From the IMG/VR virus record IMGVR_UViG_3300043783_000120, positions 1-35,043 of that record: a stretch of 35,043 nucleotides of DNA. One strand, written 5' to 3'. The notes under the pieces were generated by a model. That model had not been told where the DNA came from. It worked only from the letters and a program-made list of their open reading frames with translations, and did not search any database. Each line of letters opens with the position of its first letter. Positions within the stretch are counted from its first letter, which is position 1. Source of the DNA: a virus. Both the position numbers and the translations under genes were made by a program. Positions 26,708 through 33,339 of this stretch are shown piece after piece.

Positions 26708-26873
26708 GAGGCCCTCCTTCTAACAGCCGATTTAATTCCCAGTGCCAGTCCATCTGGCCCACCATGGCATCCATCGGGTGAAACGCTTTATAGGTCGCTA
26801 CAGACGCCGTACGGCACACCTGGATCATGTACACCGCGTTCAGCACTTCGTCCAGGCGTGCGAAGTCTTTCAC
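26688..26873 (-). CDS. Small hypothetical protein between ThyA-like and DUF3310 genes
   Basis: A 61-residue product starting at a GTG that overlaps the ThyA-like stop (GTGA). It reads KDFARLDEVLNAVYMIQVC, then DWHWELNRLLEGG. A longer open frame runs into the ThyA-like gene, but that part would be out-of-frame reading of a well-conserved C terminus. Overlaps the DUF3310 start by 20 bases. Function unknown. Confidence 0.55.
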   Translation of the reverse strand: MKDFARLDEVLNAVYMIQVCRTASVATYKAFHPMDAMVGQMDWHWELNRLLEGGPLGREQC

Positions 26874-27871
26874 GCCGTCACCGCCTTTCGCGCTTCGCGG
26901 CGCGCAACCCACTGACTCACGGCCAGCCGCCAATCCTCGGCTGCGATACACTGCCACATTGTGCGATCTTTCCAGGCGCGTAGCATGGGCAGTGCCACTT
27001 CCCAGAAGAACGGTTCCCGAAAATCTGCTAACTGTCCGGCGCAAAACTTTTCTGCATCTTCCAGCCACATCCAGGCATCGTGATTTACTAGCCGAAAGAT
27101 ACGTGGAGGAATTGCCCGCGTGTAAGCGTTAGCATGATAGGAGTCGTCTGAAAGCTCATTCAATCGTTTCGGATTCACCACGTCCGTATACAGATGCAGG
27201 TTGTTGGACATCTGCCGGTACACGCCCACCGGAACCCCCACAGCAAACGCCACCCACTCCTGCAGCACGGAAAAGTGCACTGCGTTGGCTCCGTAAGCTC
27301 CCCAAAAAAGATCATTCGATCTACAGCACACCGTCATGTTCAGCGCACCGCTACGGCGATCGAAGTAAATATGTGTATTGCAGGGGGCGTCCTTGGTGCC
27401 CTGACGCAACCGGCGTAGGTCGCCTGCGTGGGTGGAACCTTCCAGCGCGATCGTGCCGCCGTCCCACATAGCGAGCACCGCGCGCCGCGTGTCTGGGTTG
27501 GTCCGGAGTTCGTCCACCAGCGGACGCAGCTGGTCGTAACCAAAAAACTTGCGCCAGCGAAAGCCATAAGCTCCGGGCTGCGTTTTGCCGTCGTCACTGT
27601 AGGAGCCGAACCGTTTGTTGAACTGTTGCGGAAAAACAACGTCGTTGCGGCCTGCCAGCATCCAGATGGATTCCATCAGATGAAAAAACGGATTCGCATC
27701 CCGCAACGGCGAAAACAGCACGCGCTCCCGGGGGTGCGAGTACACGGTGGTAACAGGTTCCTTGAATACCAGCACTGGGCCGTTGCGGGAGGTTTCGCTA
27801 GTACTGTTGTCTTTGATCAGGCTCAGTGCCCGAGCTAGCGCATCGTTGACATTACGGCAAAAAATTTCCAT
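26870..27871 (-). CDS. Thymidylate synthase-like enzyme, probable dUMP 5-hydroxymethylase
   Basis: I chose the ATG at 27871 (333 residues), four bases after the homing endonuclease stop; an ATG at 27910 would add 13 residues that overlap that gene. The catalytic cysteine is C164 in DAPCNTHIYF, followed by CCRSNDLFWGAYGANA (R184, S185, D187), the phosphate- and pyrimidine-binding segment of the ThyA fold. RRAVLAMWD and NNLHLY are further landmarks. In a hypermodifying phage, ThyA relatives commonly make 5-hydroxymethyl-dUMP with methylene-THF, and the operon context here argues for this rather than ordinary dTMP synthesis. The substrate cannot be proved from sequence alone. Confidence 0.82.
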   Translation of the reverse strand: MEIFCRNVNDALARALSLIKDNSTSETSRNGPVLVFKEPVTTVYSHPRERVLFSPLRDANPFFHLMESIWMLAGRNDVVFPQQFNKRFGSYSDDGKTQPGAYGFRWRKFFGYDQLRPLVDELRTNPDTRRAVLAMWDGGTIALEGSTHAGDLRRLRQGTKDAPCNTHIYFDRRSGALNMTVCCRSNDLFWGAYGANAVHFSVLQEWVAFAVGVPVGVYRQMSNNLHLYTDVVNPKRLNELSDDSYHANAYTRAIPPRIFRLVNHDAWMWLEDAEKFCAGQLADFREPFFWEVALPMLRAWKDRTMWQCIAAEDWRLAVSQWVARREARKAVTA

Positions 27872-27875
27872 AAAG

Positions 27876-28439
27876 TTATGCTCTCTTCCTCCTGTGGAAT
27901 AAACTTCCACCAGGTTGCCACTGCTGCGAAGTTTTTTGAGATTTACGCTGTTTTTCGCTAGGTCGTTCGTGCGCGGCGTACATTTTTGCTAGTCTAAGTT
28001 TTCTAAGCTTGGGATTTTTCCAACGGTTACGCAGTAATTCCGATTGTCGAGCTTTAAATTTTGGTGAAGAAAAATTTTGAATTGCTCGTTCTGAAAATTT
28101 ACGATCTTTGGATGAAGTTGAAAGTGGTTGGTAGTTGTAAAGTTTGCCTTTTGGCCACCAATGATCAATGGCTTTCTGTTCGGCTTCAAATGATGCCTTT
28201 CTTGTTTTACAGAATTCAATTAAAATAAAATCGAATTGACTATCTCCAAATTTGTTCCAGTCAGCTTGTAAATTTAAATTCCAATGCACGCCTCGCTTCA
28301 ATAAAAATAAATGCTCCCGAAACCTTTTTCTTATATTGGGGGCGCTCCCAATATAGCGTCTTCCATTTTTCTTGCAAACGATGGCGTAAGAACCCGTAAC
28401 AGATAGCGGGTGCGGCGGGCGTCCTATTCTAGTCTTCAC
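27876..28439 (-). CDS. GIY-YIG homing endonuclease
   Basis: A 187-residue protein starting at a GTG that overlaps the upstream stop (GTGA), with AAAGGAGCAGC before it. The GIY-YIG nuclease domain is at about 15-105: GSYAIVCKK, RRYIGSA, a conserved-type Arg helix (NIRKRFREH), DWNKFGDSQFDF and the metal-binding glutamate in SFEAEQKAIDHW. A basic C-terminal region (RNRWKNPKLRKLRLAKM) probably contacts DNA. The gene's GC content is low: about 35% over 28021-28260, against over 70% in a sampled line (28681-28740) of the adjacent gene. That marks it as a recent insertion. Confidence 0.88.
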   Translation of the reverse strand: MKTRIGRPPHPLSVTGSYAIVCKKNGRRYIGSAPNIRKRFREHLFLLKRGVHWNLNLQADWNKFGDSQFDFILIEFCKTRKASFEAEQKAIDHWWPKGKLYNYQPLSTSSKDRKFSERAIQNFSSPKFKARQSELLRNRWKNPKLRKLRLAKMYAAHERPSEKQRKSQKTSQQWQPGGSLFHRRKRA

Positions 28440-29404
28440 GCTGCTCCTTTGAACTTTTGTTTGGGACGCCCGTGGCCCAGACGCATTTTCTCATGCTTCG
28501 CGTACTCGCATAAAAACCCTTGCGTGTCCTGCATATGAGCACGTGGCATCTTTGCTTTTTTGAACATGGGTGCTAACCATTTATCCAGCTCTAACAGTAG
28601 TTTATACCACTCCGCTTCTCGCGTCACGGACTTCGACTTGCTTCCATCAGTGGAAAGCAGGTACCCCATCCCCAACCTTGACCCCGGCCCCGACGCGGCC
28701 CATGTCCACCAGTCCAGCATGCGCTTAGGCCCCCACGACGGCAAGTACTTTAATTCCGCGATAAGCTGAGCGGCCATGAACGTGCCAAAACCATACTGCG
28801 CCCGAACCACTTCGTACAGCTCCGCCAGACTCTTACAAGCATACAGCTCCTCGGTGATGCGTTTGCGGTTCACCCACAACAGATGCAGCCGGTCGTTCAC
28901 CACGGACTGAATCTTAGGGCCGATGGAATTCAGAAAGTAAGCACCCCCAAAGATCTGGCGGGACTGGCCTGCGTCGATCTTGTAGCTGCTCCCAAAGACC
29001 TGAGAGTTTTCGCCCGGAAACAGATTCAGCGTTGCGGGCGATACACGTTTCAGCCAGCGTTCGCCCTGCCCCGTTCGGATATCATCTAGGATCTTCACCA
29101 CGCGGGCACGGTTCCACGGCACCGGGTAGCCAATGGCTTCCAGCGTGGGAGGCCAGTTGATGTATCGGGCCACCGCCATGGCGAACCAGCACAGGCGGTC
29201 GTTCTTGTGCGGTTCCCGCCAGTGCTTGCGGAGCCAGATGGTGGTCTTGTCCCATTCGCGATAATTTTCGGTGAAGCGGTAGTCACGCAGAATGGGGTTT
29301 TTTGTCCAGGGCTTGGGCTGCCCACTGTAACGGCGCTCGTGTATTCGGTGCCGTTCCTGCAGGAACTTAAACAGATCACGTACGCGATTGGCCGGAATCT
29401 TCAC
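28436..29404 (-). CDS. 5-hmdU DNA kinase helical-domain / thymine pyrophosphorylase-like protein
   Basis: The GTG at 29404 overlaps the kinase stop (GTGA) and has AAGGAGATTGCCAA before it; 322 residues. The N-terminal part is diagnostic: FLQERHRIHERRYSGQPKPW (9-28 region onward, with GQPKPWTKNPIL at 28-39) and YRFTENYREWDK at 42-53. This is the pattern of the helical domain linked to 5-hydroxymethyl-dU DNA kinase and of putrescinyl/glutamyl thymine pyrophosphorylase relatives, whose fold is related to helix-hairpin-helix DNA glycosylases. It probably binds hydroxymethylated DNA and works with the kinase. In some phages these two domains are fused; here they are separate coupled genes. Confidence 0.85.
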   Translation of the reverse strand: MKIPANRVRDLFKFLQERHRIHERRYSGQPKPWTKNPILRDYRFTENYREWDKTTIWLRKHWREPHKNDRLCWFAMAVARYINWPPTLEAIGYPVPWNRARVVKILDDIRTGQGERWLKRVSPATLNLFPGENSQVFGSSYKIDAGQSRQIFGGAYFLNSIGPKIQSVVNDRLHLLWVNRKRITEELYACKSLAELYEVVRAQYGFGTFMAAQLIAELKYLPSWGPKRMLDWWTWAASGPGSRLGMGYLLSTDGSKSKSVTREAEWYKLLLELDKWLAPMFKKAKMPRAHMQDTQGFLCEYAKHEKMRLGHGRPKQKFKGAA

Positions 29405-29955
29405 TTGGCAATCTCCTTCAACAGCTGTTTCAACGGATCTTTGTCCCAGTGCAGGGTCACCACGCGGCGACCCATGGCCGCGATGCGTTCCTGCGTCCGG
29501 ACGATCGTCACATGCCGTGTGCGTGTGTTGGTTTCGTTCAGCGGCTTGGTGTTGCCAGCCGCCTTGCGTCGCATGCGGATGTGCTTGAGACACTGCTTCA
29601 GGGGTGTGTCCAGGAAAGCAAAAATCCAGCGGTCGCCGAACTGTTCGGAATACTTGCCCACGGTGCCGTACATGCCGCTCATTAGCAGGCCTTCAAGGAA
29701 CACATTCATCTTATTGCGCGTGTAGTACTCCACACGCCGCACGATTTCCGCCTGCGTAGGAATGCTATCACAGCCTCCACACGCGGTGGCATACTTACCC
29801 AGCAGCGCCCAGCTCTGACCAGCATAGTGAAACAGCTGGTCAGGTTCGTCGGAATACACCTCGGGGCCTCCGATAGCCAGTGCCCAAAAAGCCCGCGCCA
29901 GGGTGGTCTTACCGCTGCCGGAATTGCCTCGAATGTTCACAATGATATGTTTCAT
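29401..29955 (-). CDS. P-loop 5-hydroxymethyl-dU DNA kinase
   Basis: The ATG at 29955 (184 residues) has GGAGAAAATTCT before it and overlaps the flavoenzyme stop (ATGA). The Walker A motif is GNSGSGKT at residues 10-17. A segment VEYYTRNKMNVFLEGLLMSG, then IFAFLDTPLKQCLKHI, fits a small nucleotide/nucleoside kinase fold. In phages with hypermodified thymine this enzyme phosphorylates 5-hydroxymethyl-dU within DNA (leading to the pyrophosphate) so that an amino acid can be installed. Co-transcription with the transferase and helical protein supports the call. Confidence 0.85.
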   Translation of the reverse strand: MKHIIVNIRGNSGSGKTTLARAFWALAIGGPEVYSDEPDQLFHYAGQSWALLGKYATACGGCDSIPTQAEIVRRVEYYTRNKMNVFLEGLLMSGMYGTVGKYSEQFGDRWIFAFLDTPLKQCLKHIRMRRKAAGNTKPLNETNTRTRHVTIVRTQERIAAMGRRVVTLHWDKDPLKQLLKEIAK

Positions 29956-30800
29956 AGAATTTTCTCCAACACGCGCGCCACGATCACGGGGGCATGACGA
30001 ATTCCCGATGACCACTGGGGCCGGATGCACCACTGGCCCTTGATCCTTTTCAACAGCAGTGTGTCCTCAGGTGCTGCCACCGGACGCCAGCCCTGGGTGC
30101 GTTCGCCGCAGGCTTTCACTTTAAGATCCGTGTACCGGCCCACATGCTCCAGCCAGTGTACAAATTTGGGTTCAATCTCGAGCTGTCGGGGCACGTGCTG
30201 ACTGATGAGTGAAGATCCTGCGTAGTGCCACCCCGGTTCCATGGGAACGGGGTAAGCATAAGCCAGCTTGAACCGGCCCACGCGCATGTAAAAACAATAA
30301 TTCGACAAACGATGCTGCGGAACGTAATCTAACTGCACCTTGACGTTCCAACCCCACAGATAACGATCGAGCCGTGCTCCGAAACCGTGGGAAACAATCA
30401 CCACGCTGCCTGCCGGGGCCTTGACACACCGCGCGCCCTCGAACTCAATACGCACACGCCGCACAAGGCACTGGGCGTTCAAATGAAAACTCTGTTGGCT
30501 AGCAATACCCCAAGGCCCGATGCGCTCGAATTTGTATTTACCACCGTGGGGCGGACGCTTGCTCAGAAAACAATACGTGGCGGATTCCAGCTCTGGCATT
30601 GCACCAAAGTAGTGATCTCGCCACATGGCCCAGTTCTGGTGATCATAATCGTCGCCACTGGGGTAGATGCAACCCGTGCTGGCCTGCCAGGCATTGACGG
30701 CGCTTTCGTTATCGTCCCACGTGAACGCCTGACCCTGCTGGCTGAGCTTCAGCGCCAGCAGGGAGCCAATGATGCCCATACCCTGGATGTGGAGTTTCAT
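29952..30800 (-). CDS. FAD-dependent DAO-type oxidoreductase / lyase of the hypermodification pathway
   Basis: A 282-residue protein with ATG overlapping the transferase stop (ATGA) and CCGGAGGTGAG before it. The N terminus carries GMGIIG (7-12), the dinucleotide-binding glycine motif, with an acidic pair DD at 29-30 for the ribose. GCIYPSGDDYDHQ resembles the region after the first strand in DAO-family flavoenzymes, and the C terminus (QWCIRPQWSSGIRHAP) resembles the closing FAD-binding segment. DAO relatives such as glycine oxidase oxidise amino acids. In phage M6-type pathways a flavin-dependent lyase removes part of an installed glycine, leaving 5-aminomethyl-dU. The same role is likely here but unproven. 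Confidence 0.78.
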   Translation of the reverse strand: MKLHIQGMGIIGSLLALKLSQQGQAFTWDDNESAVNAWQASTGCIYPSGDDYDHQNWAMWRDHYFGAMPELESATYCFLSKRPPHGGKYKFERIGPWGIASQQSFHLNAQCLVRRVRIEFEGARCVKAPAGSVVIVSHGFGARLDRYLWGWNVKVQLDYVPQHRLSNYCFYMRVGRFKLAYAYPVPMEPGWHYAGSSLISQHVPRQLEIEPKFVHWLEHVGRYTDLKVKACGERTQGWRPVAAPEDTLLLKRIKGQWCIRPQWSSGIRHAPVIVARVLEKIL

Positions 30801-31570
30801 CTCACCTCCGGAGGCATGGCTTTGAACAGCTTGTTGGATGTGCTGTACTGAACTTCCGCCAAAGCGTGCCGAACTTCCTTAATATCTTTTCCCACCCAGT
30901 AGCGGCCATTGATGTAGGATTTAAATTTGCACATCACACTTTCGATCTCCATCACGCCGCAACATCGACCACCGGGGGGTGCTACAAAGTTCCCTAAATA
31001 GTTTCGCAAAAGCCGAATTGCGGTTGGCAGATCCTTATGAATCAACGCAGCTCCAGCTAAAGGTTCCCTATAAAAGAACTTTTCTGCACCCCGTGGATCG
31101 ATTCTGTATTCCAGCACCCGCTCAGCTAGATCACAAAGTTTAAAAGCAGCCCAAGGCCCCATGCCGGTGGTTTCCAGAATCCGTTTGTAGCAATCATGAA
31201 ACGTAGCACCGTCTTCAAACCAATATTCAATCACAGCTTCTGGCGTGTCGCCCAGCATCAGGCAAGACCACGATTTTTCCGCTGCTTCTCCCCTCCAGTG
31301 CCGCCGCTCCGTGCCTCGGGGCCACTTACCATCTACGGGGCCATGGACGTTGTCTGCTGCCAGCCGGAGCTGGTGCCAGAATTTGTCACCCTTGAATTCC
31401 GAAAGGTAGGCGGCGCAACCCAGATGATACAGACAGGCGTAAGCCAGCACCAGCCGAGCGCGCTGGTTCCAGGGCAGCCGTGCCCCAGCGATGACGATGT
31501 ACACCGGATCAAGATCGCCGGTGATGATGAGCTGACGTCCGAACTCACACGCTTGTTTTAGATAGTTCAT
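30797..31570 (-). CDS. Amino acid:DNA transferase (AADT family)
   Basis: The ATG at 31570 overlaps the methyltransferase stop (ATGA) and gives 257 residues; a frame-compatible ATG at 31582 is less likely. The signatures are ITGDLDPVYIVIAGARLPW (17-24 region), AYACLYHLGCAAYLSE, and PRGTERRHWRG at 84-94, as I recall for the amino acid:DNA transferase domain of hypermodifying phages. The enzyme displaces pyrophosphate from 5-pyrophosphomethyl-dU in DNA with an amino acid amine or hydroxyl. Its amino acid preference cannot be read from the sequence, but the linked DAO-type enzyme suggests glycine. Confidence 0.82.
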   Translation of the reverse strand: MNYLKQACEFGRQLIITGDLDPVYIVIAGARLPWNQRARLVLAYACLYHLGCAAYLSEFKGDKFWHQLRLAADNVHGPVDGKWPRGTERRHWRGEAAEKSWSCLMLGDTPEAVIEYWFEDGATFHDCYKRILETTGMGPWAAFKLCDLAERVLEYRIDPRGAEKFFYREPLAGAALIHKDLPTAIRLLRNYLGNFVAPPGGRCCGVMEIESVMCKFKSYINGRYWVGKDIKEVRHALAEVQYSTSNKLFKAMPPEVR

Positions 31571-32289
31571 TTTGGCGACCACGCAAAAATAAGTTGATCA
31601 AAGCGCGGGCGGAACGTTTCCGCTCCGCTGGCAATCGCCTTGTCGTAGGCCGATGGGTATAGCACGTGCTCAAAGCGCCGTTTGAGCTGGTTCAGCCGAG
31701 CCTTGAGGTGCTGAACGCTTGAGTCCCGCGAAGTGTGATACTCCATCACTAGCTTTTTCGTACGCGGCAGGAGCCACGCGTCCAGGATGGGGCCTTCCGC
31801 ACCTTCGATGTCCATCTTGATTCCGGAAAACTCGCCACCCCCGGTGCTGTGTGCTGAGAGCTTTGCTAAATCGCCGGCAAAAAAGTTCGCCACCGGGGGC
31901 AGCTCCACGTAGCCCTGCACATCCAACGTGGTGCCTCGATAGTGATTCAAAGGGTTGGCGCTCTTGACGAAGCGCAGCGTGGGTTCCTTCGACGCCGTCA
32001 CCGCCTGCTGAAAGCACGTAAAGCCCAGGCCCGCGTTTTTGGTCAGCACCCGAAAACATCCTGGCTCCGGTTCAAAGCACACGGCGGTTGCGGCTCGCGA
32101 TCGGCAGTACACCGCGAAGGCCCCGATGTTGGCTCCCAGATCCAGCCACCGCTCCCCCGGTTCCACATCGAAGCCAGATCGCACGCGGCGGTAAGCCCTT
32201 CGCACCAGCACTTCGTCAATGGCCTGTTTGTCAGATTCCGTCTCTGGCCGGTACCAGATTTTGGTGTCGCCTATTTTAAGGAGCTTCAT
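31567..32289 (-). CDS. FkbM-family SAM-dependent methyltransferase
   Basis: A 240-residue protein, ATG with AAGGGGCTACTGAA before it. The SAM-binding motif I is WLDLGANIGAFA (DLGANIG at 50-56), followed by an acidic residue in CFEPEP at 71-76. IKMDIEGAE at 157-165 is the signature of the FkbM family, whose studied members mostly methylate hydroxyl groups of small molecules and sugars. It is coupled at both ends (ATGA) to the transferase and to a small membrane protein gene. Its position at the head of the hypermodification operon suggests it methylates the installed side chain on DNA. The target is inference. Confidence 0.85.
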   Translation of the reverse strand: MKLLKIGDTKIWYRPETESDKQAIDEVLVRRAYRRVRSGFDVEPGERWLDLGANIGAFAVYCRSRAATAVCFEPEPGCFRVLTKNAGLGFTCFQQAVTASKEPTLRFVKSANPLNHYRGTTLDVQGYVELPPVANFFAGDLAKLSAHSTGGGEFSGIKMDIEGAEGPILDAWLLPRTKKLVMEYHTSRDSSVQHLKARLNQLKRRFEHVLYPSAYDKAIASGAETFRPRFDQLIFAWSPK

Positions 32290-32459
32290 TTCAGTAGCCC
32301 CTTCGGACTATAGTAACCTCCCGAATAAACGTAAGGCTTGGGCGGACGAATTTTATTTTTCGCCCACTTTGCCAGTTCTATAACTTCGCTGATCAGCACC
32401 GCAAAAGAAACGGGTAAGCCAAAGCCAATCAACAGCCCCAGAAGAATGTAGTCGCACAT
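32286..32459 (-). CDS. Small membrane protein at the head of the hypermodification operon
   Basis: A 57-residue protein whose ATG has GGAAAGGATTCT upstream and whose stop overlaps the FkbM start (ATGA). It has one membrane helix (YILLGLLIGFGLPVSFAVLI) followed by a helix ELAKWAKNKIR and a Tyr/Pro/Gly tail (PYVYSGGYYS). No family recognised. It may simply be carried by the operon, with no part in base modification. Confidence 0.65.
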   Translation of the reverse strand: MCDYILLGLLIGFGLPVSFAVLISEVIELAKWAKNKIRPPKPYVYSGGYYSPKGLLK

Positions 32460-32531: not shown

Positions 32532-33272
32532 TTAGGCGGCGGTCACGGTGAGGTAGCCACCCTTGGTCAGGCGCGCGCGGTAAAAGCTCCAGATGACGCC
32601 CAGCGGCTGCTTGGTTTCGATCTTGCCTTCCATACGCTTTTTGAGTTCCGCGATGGTCAGCTTGCCAGCCTTCTTCACGATTTCCAGAATCCCAAGCGCC
32701 TGAGCAGGCAGAGCCTTTTCGTCAGCCATCTTCTTGAAGGCCACAATGGTGTTGGCTCCACGGGTGGACGTGCTGCTCTTGGCGGAGGCGGCAGCTTTGG
32801 CGCTCTTGGTGGGCTTTGCATTTTTCTGTTTTGCCATGGTCATAAGCTCTTTGTCGTTCAGAATCGTATTGAGATATTTCTTACTGCGCTCGCTTACTAT
32901 TATACTACTTGTTAAAGGTTTAGCAAGTATTTTCGCAGCATCCTGAATGCTGGCTTCCGGGATGGGCTTGAGGCCCCGGCTGCGAATCGTCGTGGTGTCC
33001 ATTTCCACCACCTCAATCGCCGGGCCAGTGTGGACAATGAAGCGCGCGCCCTGGGTTGTCATTTCCACCCGCAGGTAGGCCACACCCTGTGCGTCTACCA
33101 TGACAAGGTAGGGGCGACCGTCCAGCCCGTTTTCCTGGGCTAGCTGGGTGGCCGTCATGGCCCGTTCCATCTTCGTACCTTTGCGGGCCGGAAGGGTGGA
33201 TTTCAGCGCCTGGGTGCCCACCCGGCGCTGGGCTTGCGCAGCACGTTCTCGCACTAACTTTGATCGTGTCAT
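32532..33272 (-). CDS. Protein with Lys/Ala-rich linker and C-terminal winged-helix-like domain
   Basis: The ATG at 33272 has GCGAGGACAAA upstream, within the repeated leader; 246 residues. The N-terminal 140 residues (RPYLVMVDAQGVAYLRVEM) are a beta-rich domain of unknown family. Then comes a histone-H1-like linker (QKNAKPTKSAKAAASAK), and the last 65 residues (GILEIVKKAGKLTIAELKK, then YRARLTKGGYLTV) resemble a winged-helix DNA-binding fold. A candidate sigma70 promoter lies inside the gene at 32899-32926, just before the linker, so the C-terminal part might also be made separately from a Met at about 32838. Confidence 0.6.
   Translation of the reverse strand: MTRSKLVRERAAQAQRRVGTQALKSTLPARKGTKMERAMTATQLAQENGLDGRPYLVMVDAQGVAYLRVEMTTQGARFIVHTGPAIEVVEMDTTTIRSRGLKPIPEASIQDAAKILAKPLTSSIIVSERSKKYLNTILNDKELMTMAKQKNAKPTKSAKAAASAKSSTSTRGANTIVAFKKMADEKALPAQALGILEIVKKAGKLTIAELKKRMEGKIETKQPLGVIWSFYRARLTKGGYLTVTAA
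32899..32926 (-). promoter_or_regulatory. Candidate sigma70 promoter inside the 32532-33272 gene
   Basis: On the minus strand TTGCTA (32926-32921), a 16-base spacer and TATAAT (32904-32899). The -10 box is a perfect consensus match, the -35 matches four of six positions. It sits in a short AT-rich island within a GC-rich gene. It could supply transcripts of the wHTH-like C-terminal portion and of the hypermodification operon downstream. Confidence 0.45.
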
Positions 33273-33303
33273 TTTGTCCTCGCAGTGGTCTAGTTGACCA
33301 CGC
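33270..33303 (-). repeat. Leader repeat, copy 1 (upstream of 33272 gene)
   Basis: Minus-strand leader ending GCGAGGACAAAATG, closely similar to copy 2 at 34969-35003 (first 18 plus-strand bases identical, and the far CCACGC end matches). In this copy GTGGTC and GACCAC form a perfect six-pair hairpin with a five-base loop ahead of the ribosome binding site. It looks like a shared control element, operator or translation regulator. Confidence 0.6.
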
Positions 33304-33339
33304 ACGGAGCCTGCGCCAGCAGGCCCCTAGCGTCGGCAC

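What the first reader, a model, noticed from the sequence alone, without database searches (positions are those of the whole stretch)
31567..32289. FkbM methyltransferase coupled to the amino acid:DNA transferase: possible methylated hypermodified base
The methyltransferase gene overlaps the transferase by ATGA and stands at the head of the operon. I know of no chemically characterised thymidine hypermodification that carries a methyl group added by an FkbM enzyme. If the FAD enzyme leaves 5-aminomethyl-dU, an N-methyl product would be a natural prediction; if an oxygen-linked residue were installed, an O-methyl one. Either would be new chemistry.
Basis: inference. Interest (0 to 1): 0.88.

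Follow-up and report, generated by a model that had tools for sequence, protein, structure and literature searches.

The report
Methyl-capping enzyme for phage DNA bases
A phage gene predicted to add methyl groups sits in a set of genes that rebuild thymine in the phage's own DNA, and its closest relatives in other viruses sit almost without exception beside genes that put a hydroxymethyl group on DNA bases, so it probably adds a methyl cap to the altered base, a DNA modification not reported in the papers I could search.

Summary
The gene is real: 240 aa, minus strand, 31567-32289, FkbM-family methyltransferase, overlapping the amino acid:DNA transferase (ADDT) by ATGA. It does not quite head the operon: a 57-aa ORF overlaps its start by another ATGA. 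The operon holds the known thymidine-hypermodification set: hydroxymethylase-like TS, both parts of the 5-hmdU kinase, a DAAO/MnmC-fold flavin enzyme and an ADDT related to the solved PaMx11 glycinyltransferase. The window protein lies in a 13-sequence clade (100/98), every member from a record with the helical kinase-domain gene (HEL). HEL was found in 13 of 14 records of relatives, against 0 of 15 records of distant FkbM. HEL and TS, not ADDT, are the constant partners; some clusters hold only TS+HEL+FkbM. A sister group, 57 loci, sits in ParB-FkbM-Tet/JBP modules, the other way of making 5-hydroxymethyl bases. So the enzyme most likely methylates the C5 substituent of modified pyrimidines in DNA. 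O-methylation of 5-hmdU (5-methoxymethyl-dU) fits all contexts; N-methylation of 5-aminomethyl-dU (DNA counterpart of tRNA mnm5U) also fits the window, L102 and L103. The chemistry is inferred, not shown.

The parts
31567..32289 (-). FkbM-family SAM-dependent methyltransferase, 240 aa; invariant D50, G52, E73, K158, D160-I-E162-G163-A-E165, E183; R118 invariant in the DNA-modification clades but not in three distant FkbM
   Evidence: AlphaFold model pLDDT 95.3, Rossmann MTase fold incl. 2py6 FkbM Z 12.2
31567..31570 (-). ATGA stop/start overlap FkbM -> ADDT
   Evidence: sequence
30797..31570 (-). Amino acid:DNA transferase (ADDT; aGPT-Pplase2), from the ATG of the ATGA overlap (the open frame reaches GTG 31582)
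   Evidence: PF18724 E 2.6e-10; 1e-49 to PaMx11 glycinyltransferase 8z2m
29952..30800 (-). DAAO-fold flavin-type enzyme (Gordonia/Rhodococcus-phage type)
   Evidence: model pLDDT 77; DAAO/glycine oxidase/sarcosine oxidase/MnmC Z 19-21 over 265-278 residues
29401..30033 (-). P-loop 5-hmdU DNA kinase (HMUDK_HMUD1-like)
   Evidence: PF18748 E 5.6e-5, below cut-off; 36% identical to the PaMx11 homologue
28436..29593 (-). HMUDK_hel protein (5-hmdU kinase helical domain / aGPT-Pplase1), 'HEL'
   Evidence: PF18723 E 3.2e-33
27876..28439 (-). GIY-YIG homing-type endonuclease, probably an insertion in the operon
   Evidence: PF01541 E 1.2e-9, PHROG 314
26870..27910 (-). Thymidylate synthase-like dUMP hydroxymethylase
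   Evidence: PF00303 E 7.9e-16, PHROG 5131 E 3.9e-101
32286..32459 (-). 57-aa ORF with one hydrophobic stretch, ATGA overlap with the FkbM start

Best explanation
The gene encodes a methyltransferase that acts on phage DNA after replication and adds a methyl cap to the C5 substituent of a modified deoxyuridine. Shown here by sequence: membership in the FkbM family, membership in a clade tied to genes that make 5-hydroxymethyl bases, and a basic protein (net charge about +6). Inferred: the TS-like enzyme makes 5-hydroxymethyl-dUMP, which enters the DNA; the helical kinase-domain protein HEL (or, in the sister clade, the Tet/JBP oxygenase) supplies or presents the 5-hydroxymethyl base; and FkbM transfers methyl from SAM. 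The acceptor that fits every context is the hydroxyl of 5-hmdU, giving 5-methoxymethyl-dU (about 0.45). In the window, and in L102 and L103, where ADDT and a DAAO-fold flavin enzyme would give 5-aminomethyl-dU, the acceptor may instead be that amine, giving 5-(methylaminomethyl)-dU (about 0.3), the same last step that MnmC carries out on tRNA. The likely benefit is protection from host nucleases, as for other phage base modifications. The confidence given is for a methyl cap on a modified base in DNA, whichever atom receives it.
For: Close clade: 13 sequences, support 100/98, all from records with HEL. HEL in 13 of 14 records of relatives against 0 of 15 records of distant FkbM hits (Fisher p 2e-7). 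Translational coupling to HEL (ATGA in L103 and L107). Sister group: 57 loci with Tet/JBP on the same strand, overlapping or abutting in 56, nearly all with ParB; Tet/JBP checked by Pfam in samples. A 54-sequence clade joins both contexts (98/91). Minimal TS+HEL+FkbM clusters include a 67-kb record whose HEL gene is split across both contig ends (apparently circular and complete) with no ADDT, kinase or Tet/JBP hit. Tet/JBP enzymes act on DNA, so FkbM there presumably does too. Charge: window +6.2, close clade median +4, distant FkbM median -11.7. Amine option: window, L102, L103 have ADDT + flavin enzyme and no acetyltransferase, whereas PaMx11, Lucjan and Epa5 have ADDT-flavin lyase-GNAT-kinase-HEL-TS; MnmC precedent from PMC3648344.
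Against: No biochemistry or mass data exist for any member that I could find. The 5-hmdU contexts come from metagenomic contigs, mostly fragments, so a missing kinase or ADDT can be a gap in the contig or in HMM sensitivity. In the window FkbM is coupled to ADDT, not to HEL. O-methylating 5-hmdU would compete with the kinase for the same hydroxyl in clusters that hold both. L126 has ADDT-flavin-kinase-HEL-TS with neither FkbM nor acetyltransferase, so there is no strict one-for-one swap.
Confidence: 0.78

Rival explanations
1. FkbM N-methylates 5-aminomethyl-dU made by ADDT (glycine transfer) and the flavin enzyme, giving 5-(methylaminomethyl)-dU, a DNA copy of the tRNA route cmnm5U -> nm5U -> mnm5U.
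For: Window, L102 and L103 hold ADDT, a DAAO-type flavin enzyme and FkbM but no acetyltransferase; window ADDT matches the PaMx11 glycinyltransferase 8z2m at 1e-49; L102/L103 flavin enzymes are DAO family and resemble the PaMx11 type, whose PaMx11 member is deposited as flavin-dependent lyase 8z2o; window flavin enzyme fold includes MnmC 3ps9, Z 19.1; MnmC chemistry in PMC3648344.
Against: Most relatives lack ADDT and the flavin enzyme. L104, L069 and L117 have ADDT without a flavin enzyme hit in the locus. From general knowledge, characterised FkbM enzymes are O-methyltransferases.
Confidence: 0.3
2. FkbM caps residual 5-hmdU by O-methylation (5-methoxymethyl-dU) in parallel with the amino-acid branch, giving two different modified thymidines in one genome.
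For: The common denominator of all contexts is a 5-hydroxymethyl pyrimidine: TS+HEL+FkbM and ParB+Tet/JBP+FkbM clusters.
Against: Competition with the 5-hmdU kinase in the window; no product known.
Confidence: 0.45
3. FkbM methylates the carboxylate or another group of the amino-acid adduct (for example a methyl ester of N-glycyl-thymidine), or a sugar-like group.
For: Direct ADDT-FkbM adjacency in the window, L069 and L117; a glycosyltransferase between HEL and TS in L070 and an inositol-phosphate synthase beside FkbM in L069.
Against: Minimal clusters have no such adduct-making gene.
Confidence: 0.1
4. FkbM has a non-DNA substrate such as a host surface sugar, as for many FkbM enzymes, and its place in the operon is accidental.
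For: FkbM is a large family often found with surface-glycan genes (general knowledge).
Against: 13/14 vs 0/15 HEL association, 57 Tet/JBP-linked loci, basic charge unlike distant FkbM.
Confidence: 0.07

Closest known systems
Pseudomonas phage PaMx11 thymidine-hypermodification operon (gp46 glycinyltransferase 8z2m/8z2n, gp47 flavin-dependent lyase 8z2o/8z79, gp48 GNAT acetyltransferase, kinase, aGPT-Pplase1/HEL, TS)
   Same: Same gene set and order ADDT-flavin enzyme-kinase-HEL-TS
   Different: Window has FkbM and no acetyltransferase; its flavin enzyme is of a different sequence family that aligns to gp47 only over a short nucleotide-binding motif
MnmC tRNA wobble-uridine enzyme (cmnm5U -> nm5U -> mnm5U)
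   Same: Flavin-dependent removal of the glycine-derived carboxymethyl group, then SAM-dependent methylation, on a 5-substituted uridine (PMC3648344); window flavin enzyme has this fold
   Different: DNA rather than tRNA; separate genes; the methyltransferase is FkbM family; methylation of an amine is not shown
ParB-Tet/JBP modules of actinophages (Gordonia phage Wooper, Rhodococcus phage Tonitrus)
   Same: Tet/JBP + ADDT + kinase + the same flavin-enzyme family as the window; Tonitrus described as carrying a thymine-hypermodification system (PMC11955845)
   Different: They have no FkbM in the module; the window has TS instead of Tet/JBP
Pelagibacter phage HTVC112P and Prochlorococcus phage MED4-117/P-HS2 ParB, FkbM, Tet/JBP module
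   Same: FkbM homologue (29-32% identity) overlapping or abutting a Tet/JBP gene
   Different: No kinase, ADDT or TS in the module; not described as a modification system in the records

Membership tests
FkbM-family methyltransferase | Match to the FkbM domain over curated cut-off | tested here: met
   PF05050 30.5 bits vs 22.7; TIGR01444 49.2 vs 37.7
FkbM-family methyltransferase | Class I Rossmann methyltransferase fold with SAM site | tested here: met
   Model pLDDT 95; 2py6 FkbM Z 12.2, rmsd 3.0, 158 aligned; the SAM site itself only by conserved motifs
Thymidine hypermodification operon (5-hmdU route) | dUMP hydroxymethylase (TS-like) | tested here: met
   PHROG 5131 E 3.9e-101; hydroxymethylase rather than methylase activity is inferred from the context
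Thymidine hypermodification operon (5-hmdU route) | 5-hmdU DNA kinase | tested here: met
   PF18723 E 3.2e-33; the P-loop part PF18748 E 5.6e-5 is below cut-off
Thymidine hypermodification operon (5-hmdU route) | Amino acid:DNA transferase | tested here: met
   PF18724 E 2.6e-10; 1e-49 to glycinyltransferase 8z2m
Thymidine hypermodification operon (5-hmdU route) | Modified thymidine present in virion DNA | not testable with these tools
   Needs LC-MS; the window is a metagenomic contig
PaMx11-type 5-aminomethyl-dU branch | Flavin-dependent lyase homologous to gp47 | tested here: inconclusive
   No sequence homology beyond a short nucleotide-binding motif, but DAAO/glycine oxidase/MnmC fold, Z 19-21
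PaMx11-type 5-aminomethyl-dU branch | Acetyltransferase | tested here: not met
   No homologue of gp48 found in the window
MnmC-like pathway | MnmC2-type (Methyltransf_30) methyltransferase | tested here: not met
   Only FkbM and general MTase families hit; it may work like MnmC2 but is not one
MnmC-like pathway | N-methylation of an aminomethyl-uracil | not testable with these tools
   Enzyme assay needed

The most novel reading that the evidence does not exclude
A widespread phage FkbM clade puts a methyl ether on 5-hydroxymethyl pyrimidines in DNA (5-methoxymethyl-dU or -dC), made by minimal modules (TS+HEL+FkbM or ParB+Tet/JBP+FkbM), and in some phages such as this one the same clade is joined to the amino-acid branch to give methylated aminomethyl-dU.
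Probability: 0.4. Interest if true: 0.87.

Novelty: new variant of a known kind. Interest (0 to 1): 0.72.

Why it matters
If true, it adds methylation to the known ways of tailoring phage thymidine hypermodifications, links the two independent ways of making 5-hydroxymethyl bases in DNA (TS-type synthesis and Tet/JBP oxidation) through one enzyme clade, and predicts a definite, easily measured product in phages that already exist in culture (Pelagibacter HTVC112P, Prochlorococcus P-HS2). It also gives candidate enzymes for capping or labelling 5-hydroxymethyl bases.

Tried and rejected
FkbM as a surface-glycan enzyme: rejected as the leading view because of the neighbour statistics. ADDT as the obligate partner: rejected, most relatives lack it. 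The window flavin enzyme as a gp47 orthologue: not supported by sequence. L006 (flavin enzyme, MTase-like ORF, ADDT) as an independent methyltransferase case: set aside, the ORF looks like part of an Eco57I-type adenine methylase and its surroundings contain a repeated stretch. HEL as a full homologue of ADDT: profile comparison weak (33%, E 4.6e-4), left open. A scan of ADDT relatives with a broad alignment failed for lack of conserved stretches, so I have no unbiased count of how often ADDT clusters carry a methyltransferase; among cultured phages none of the seven FkbM-bearing records is an ADDT record listed. Bacterial genomes: no relative confirmed. Single-sequence scans of IMG/VR found few relatives. 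Structure matches do not discriminate O- from N-methyltransferases: top hits are fibrillarins, other RNA MTases and generic MTases. Key papers (Lee 2018, Lee 2022, Iyer 2013, Wen 2024, Hutinet 2021) are not held and could not be read, so an earlier mention of FkbM there cannot be excluded; searches of the held library found none.

Full report
What is there. The ORF at 31567-32289 on the minus strand encodes 240 aa. It matches the FkbM methyltransferase family above two curated cut-offs. Its TGA lies in ATGA, whose ATG opens the amino acid:DNA transferase gene. It is not quite the first gene: a 57-aa ORF (32459-32286) ends in ATGA over the FkbM start. Downstream, on the same strand, follow ADDT, a flavin-type enzyme, a P-loop kinase, the helical 5-hmdU kinase domain (HEL), a GIY-YIG endonuclease and a TS-like gene. 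The record G000 has 35,043 bases, the same length as the window.

Identity of the pathway genes. ADDT matches the solved PaMx11 glycinyltransferase 8z2m at 1e-49. PaMx11 has the order ADDT, flavin-dependent lyase (8z2o), GNAT acetyltransferase, kinase, HEL, TS. The window flavin enzyme has no Pfam hit over cut-off, but its relatives are gene 5 of Gordonia phages and gene 8 of Rhodococcus phage Tonitrus, which sit in ParB-Tet/JBP-ADDT-kinase clusters. Its model (pLDDT 77) matches D-amino acid oxidase, glycine oxidase, sarcosine oxidase and MnmC over 265-278 residues at Z 19-21. This supports, without proving, oxidative release of a 5-aminomethyl group.

Relatives of the FkbM protein. In 50,697 phage records only seven match, in marine phages and one environmental genome. 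In Pelagibacter HTVC112P and Prochlorococcus MED4-117 the gene lies beside a Tet/JBP gene and a ParB-domain gene; the Tet/JBP genes were labelled otherwise in the records. A profile scan of IMG/VR gave 80 loci. Of 84 loci with an FkbM hit (the window among them, counted also as L007), 57 carry Tet/JBP, always on the same strand and overlapping or abutting in all but one, and 9 carry TS, HEL, kinase or ADDT; no locus has both. A second scan with the closest relatives gave sequences of up to 56% identity. The query of the first scan contained two Tet/JBP-linked sequences, so the number of Tet/JBP loci is not an unbiased frequency.

Contexts of the close clade. Window, L102 and L103: ADDT + flavin enzyme + kinase + HEL (+ TS, beyond the end of L103) + FkbM, no acetyltransferase found. 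L104: ADDT + kinase + HEL + TS + FkbM. L107: three kinase ORFs + FkbM + HEL + TS. L117: ADDT + FkbM + HEL. L008, L009, L011, L108, L109, L111, L116: TS + HEL + FkbM. L119: FkbM about 15 kb from HEL and kinase in one 104-kb record. Whole-record searches of 14 records (13 from the second scan plus L070; L114 and L115 are near copies) found HEL in 13, ADDT in 4, kinase in 4, Tet/JBP in none. The L109 record (67,368 bases) has HEL split across its two ends, so it looks like a complete circular genome, and no ADDT, kinase or Tet/JBP was found in it. As a control, 15 records of distant FkbM hits held no HEL; 13/14 against 0/15 gives p 2e-7. The records are not fully independent, so the p value is a guide only.

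Tree. With 64 sequences, the window lies in a 13-sequence clade (100/98) made up only of sequences from records with HEL, next to L102 (93/54). A 54-sequence clade (98/91) joins this with all Tet/JBP-linked sequences; distant FkbM fall outside. L069 and L070 are long branches of uncertain place. R118 is invariant in both modification clades and absent in three distant FkbM used for comparison; the stretch EYHxSRD of the HEL clade is mostly EWSFDID in the Tet clade, a possible mark of different substrates. The window protein is basic (+6.2); the HEL clade median is +4, the Tet clade about 0, distant FkbM -12.

How it most likely works. The one thing shared by all contexts is a gene that makes a 5-hydroxymethyl pyrimidine, either as nucleotide (TS-like) or in DNA (Tet/JBP). 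The most economical reading is that FkbM methylates the C5 substituent in DNA. O-methylation of 5-hmdU needs nothing further and fits the minimal clusters. In the window, L102 and L103 the amine made by ADDT and the flavin enzyme is a second possible acceptor; there FkbM stands in clusters that lack the acetyltransferase of PaMx11, and the route would parallel MnmC in tRNA (PMC3648344). The swap is not strict: L126 has the same operon with neither tailoring gene. Which acceptor is used is not decided by any evidence here.

Comparison and novelty. As a pathway this is a new variant of the known thymidine-hypermodification operons. For the clade-level association of FkbM with both 5-hmdU clusters and Tet/JBP modules I found no earlier description in the held literature, but the main papers of the field could not be read. 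One synthetic paper lists methylated 5-aminomethyluracil among phage-related bases without giving a phage source in the passages I could read (PMC11550810).

Noticed in passing
window 29952-30800 (-): The flavin enzyme belongs to an unnamed sequence family shared with gene 5 of Gordonia Sourvirus phages and gene 8 of Rhodococcus phage Tonitrus, annotated hypothetical; the predicted fold is DAAO/MnmC-like.
   Followed up: yes
window 32286-32459 (-): 57-aa ORF with a hydrophobic stretch, overlapping the FkbM start by ATGA; function unknown.
   Followed up: partly
window 32532-33305 (-): Basic Ala/Lys-rich ORF; by eye similar Ala-rich ORFs lie just upstream of ADDT in L102 (5739-6872) and L103 (6386-7441).
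   Followed up: no
window 27876-28439 (-): GIY-YIG endonuclease gene between HEL and TS, probably a homing insertion; L009 has an HNH-type ORF between HEL and FkbM.
   Followed up: no
window 29401-30033 (-): PHROG 800, labelled terminase small subunit, matches this kinase-like protein at 3e-20; phage records (PaMx11, P26218) carry the same label on the homologous kinase gene, probably a mislabel.
   Followed up: partly
L001 7094-8002; L002 8708-9493: Genes recorded as DnaJ/SNF2 and as queuine tRNA-ribosyltransferase match Tet/JBP (1e-29; 3.5e-6, the latter below cut-off).
   Followed up: yes
L069 8551-9801: Myo-inositol-1-phosphate synthase domain directly after ADDT and FkbM in a 5-hmdU cluster, perhaps an inositol-type adduct.
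   Followed up: partly
L070 12220-13536: Glycosyltransferase between HEL and TS, perhaps a glycosylated 5-hmdU.
   Followed up: partly
L006 5349-8771: Flavin enzyme, Eco57I-like methylase fragment with NPPW, then ADDT, kinase and TS; the region contains a repeated stretch.
   Followed up: partly
L107 2-3167: Three different P-loop kinase ORFs in one small cluster with FkbM, HEL and TS.
   Followed up: no
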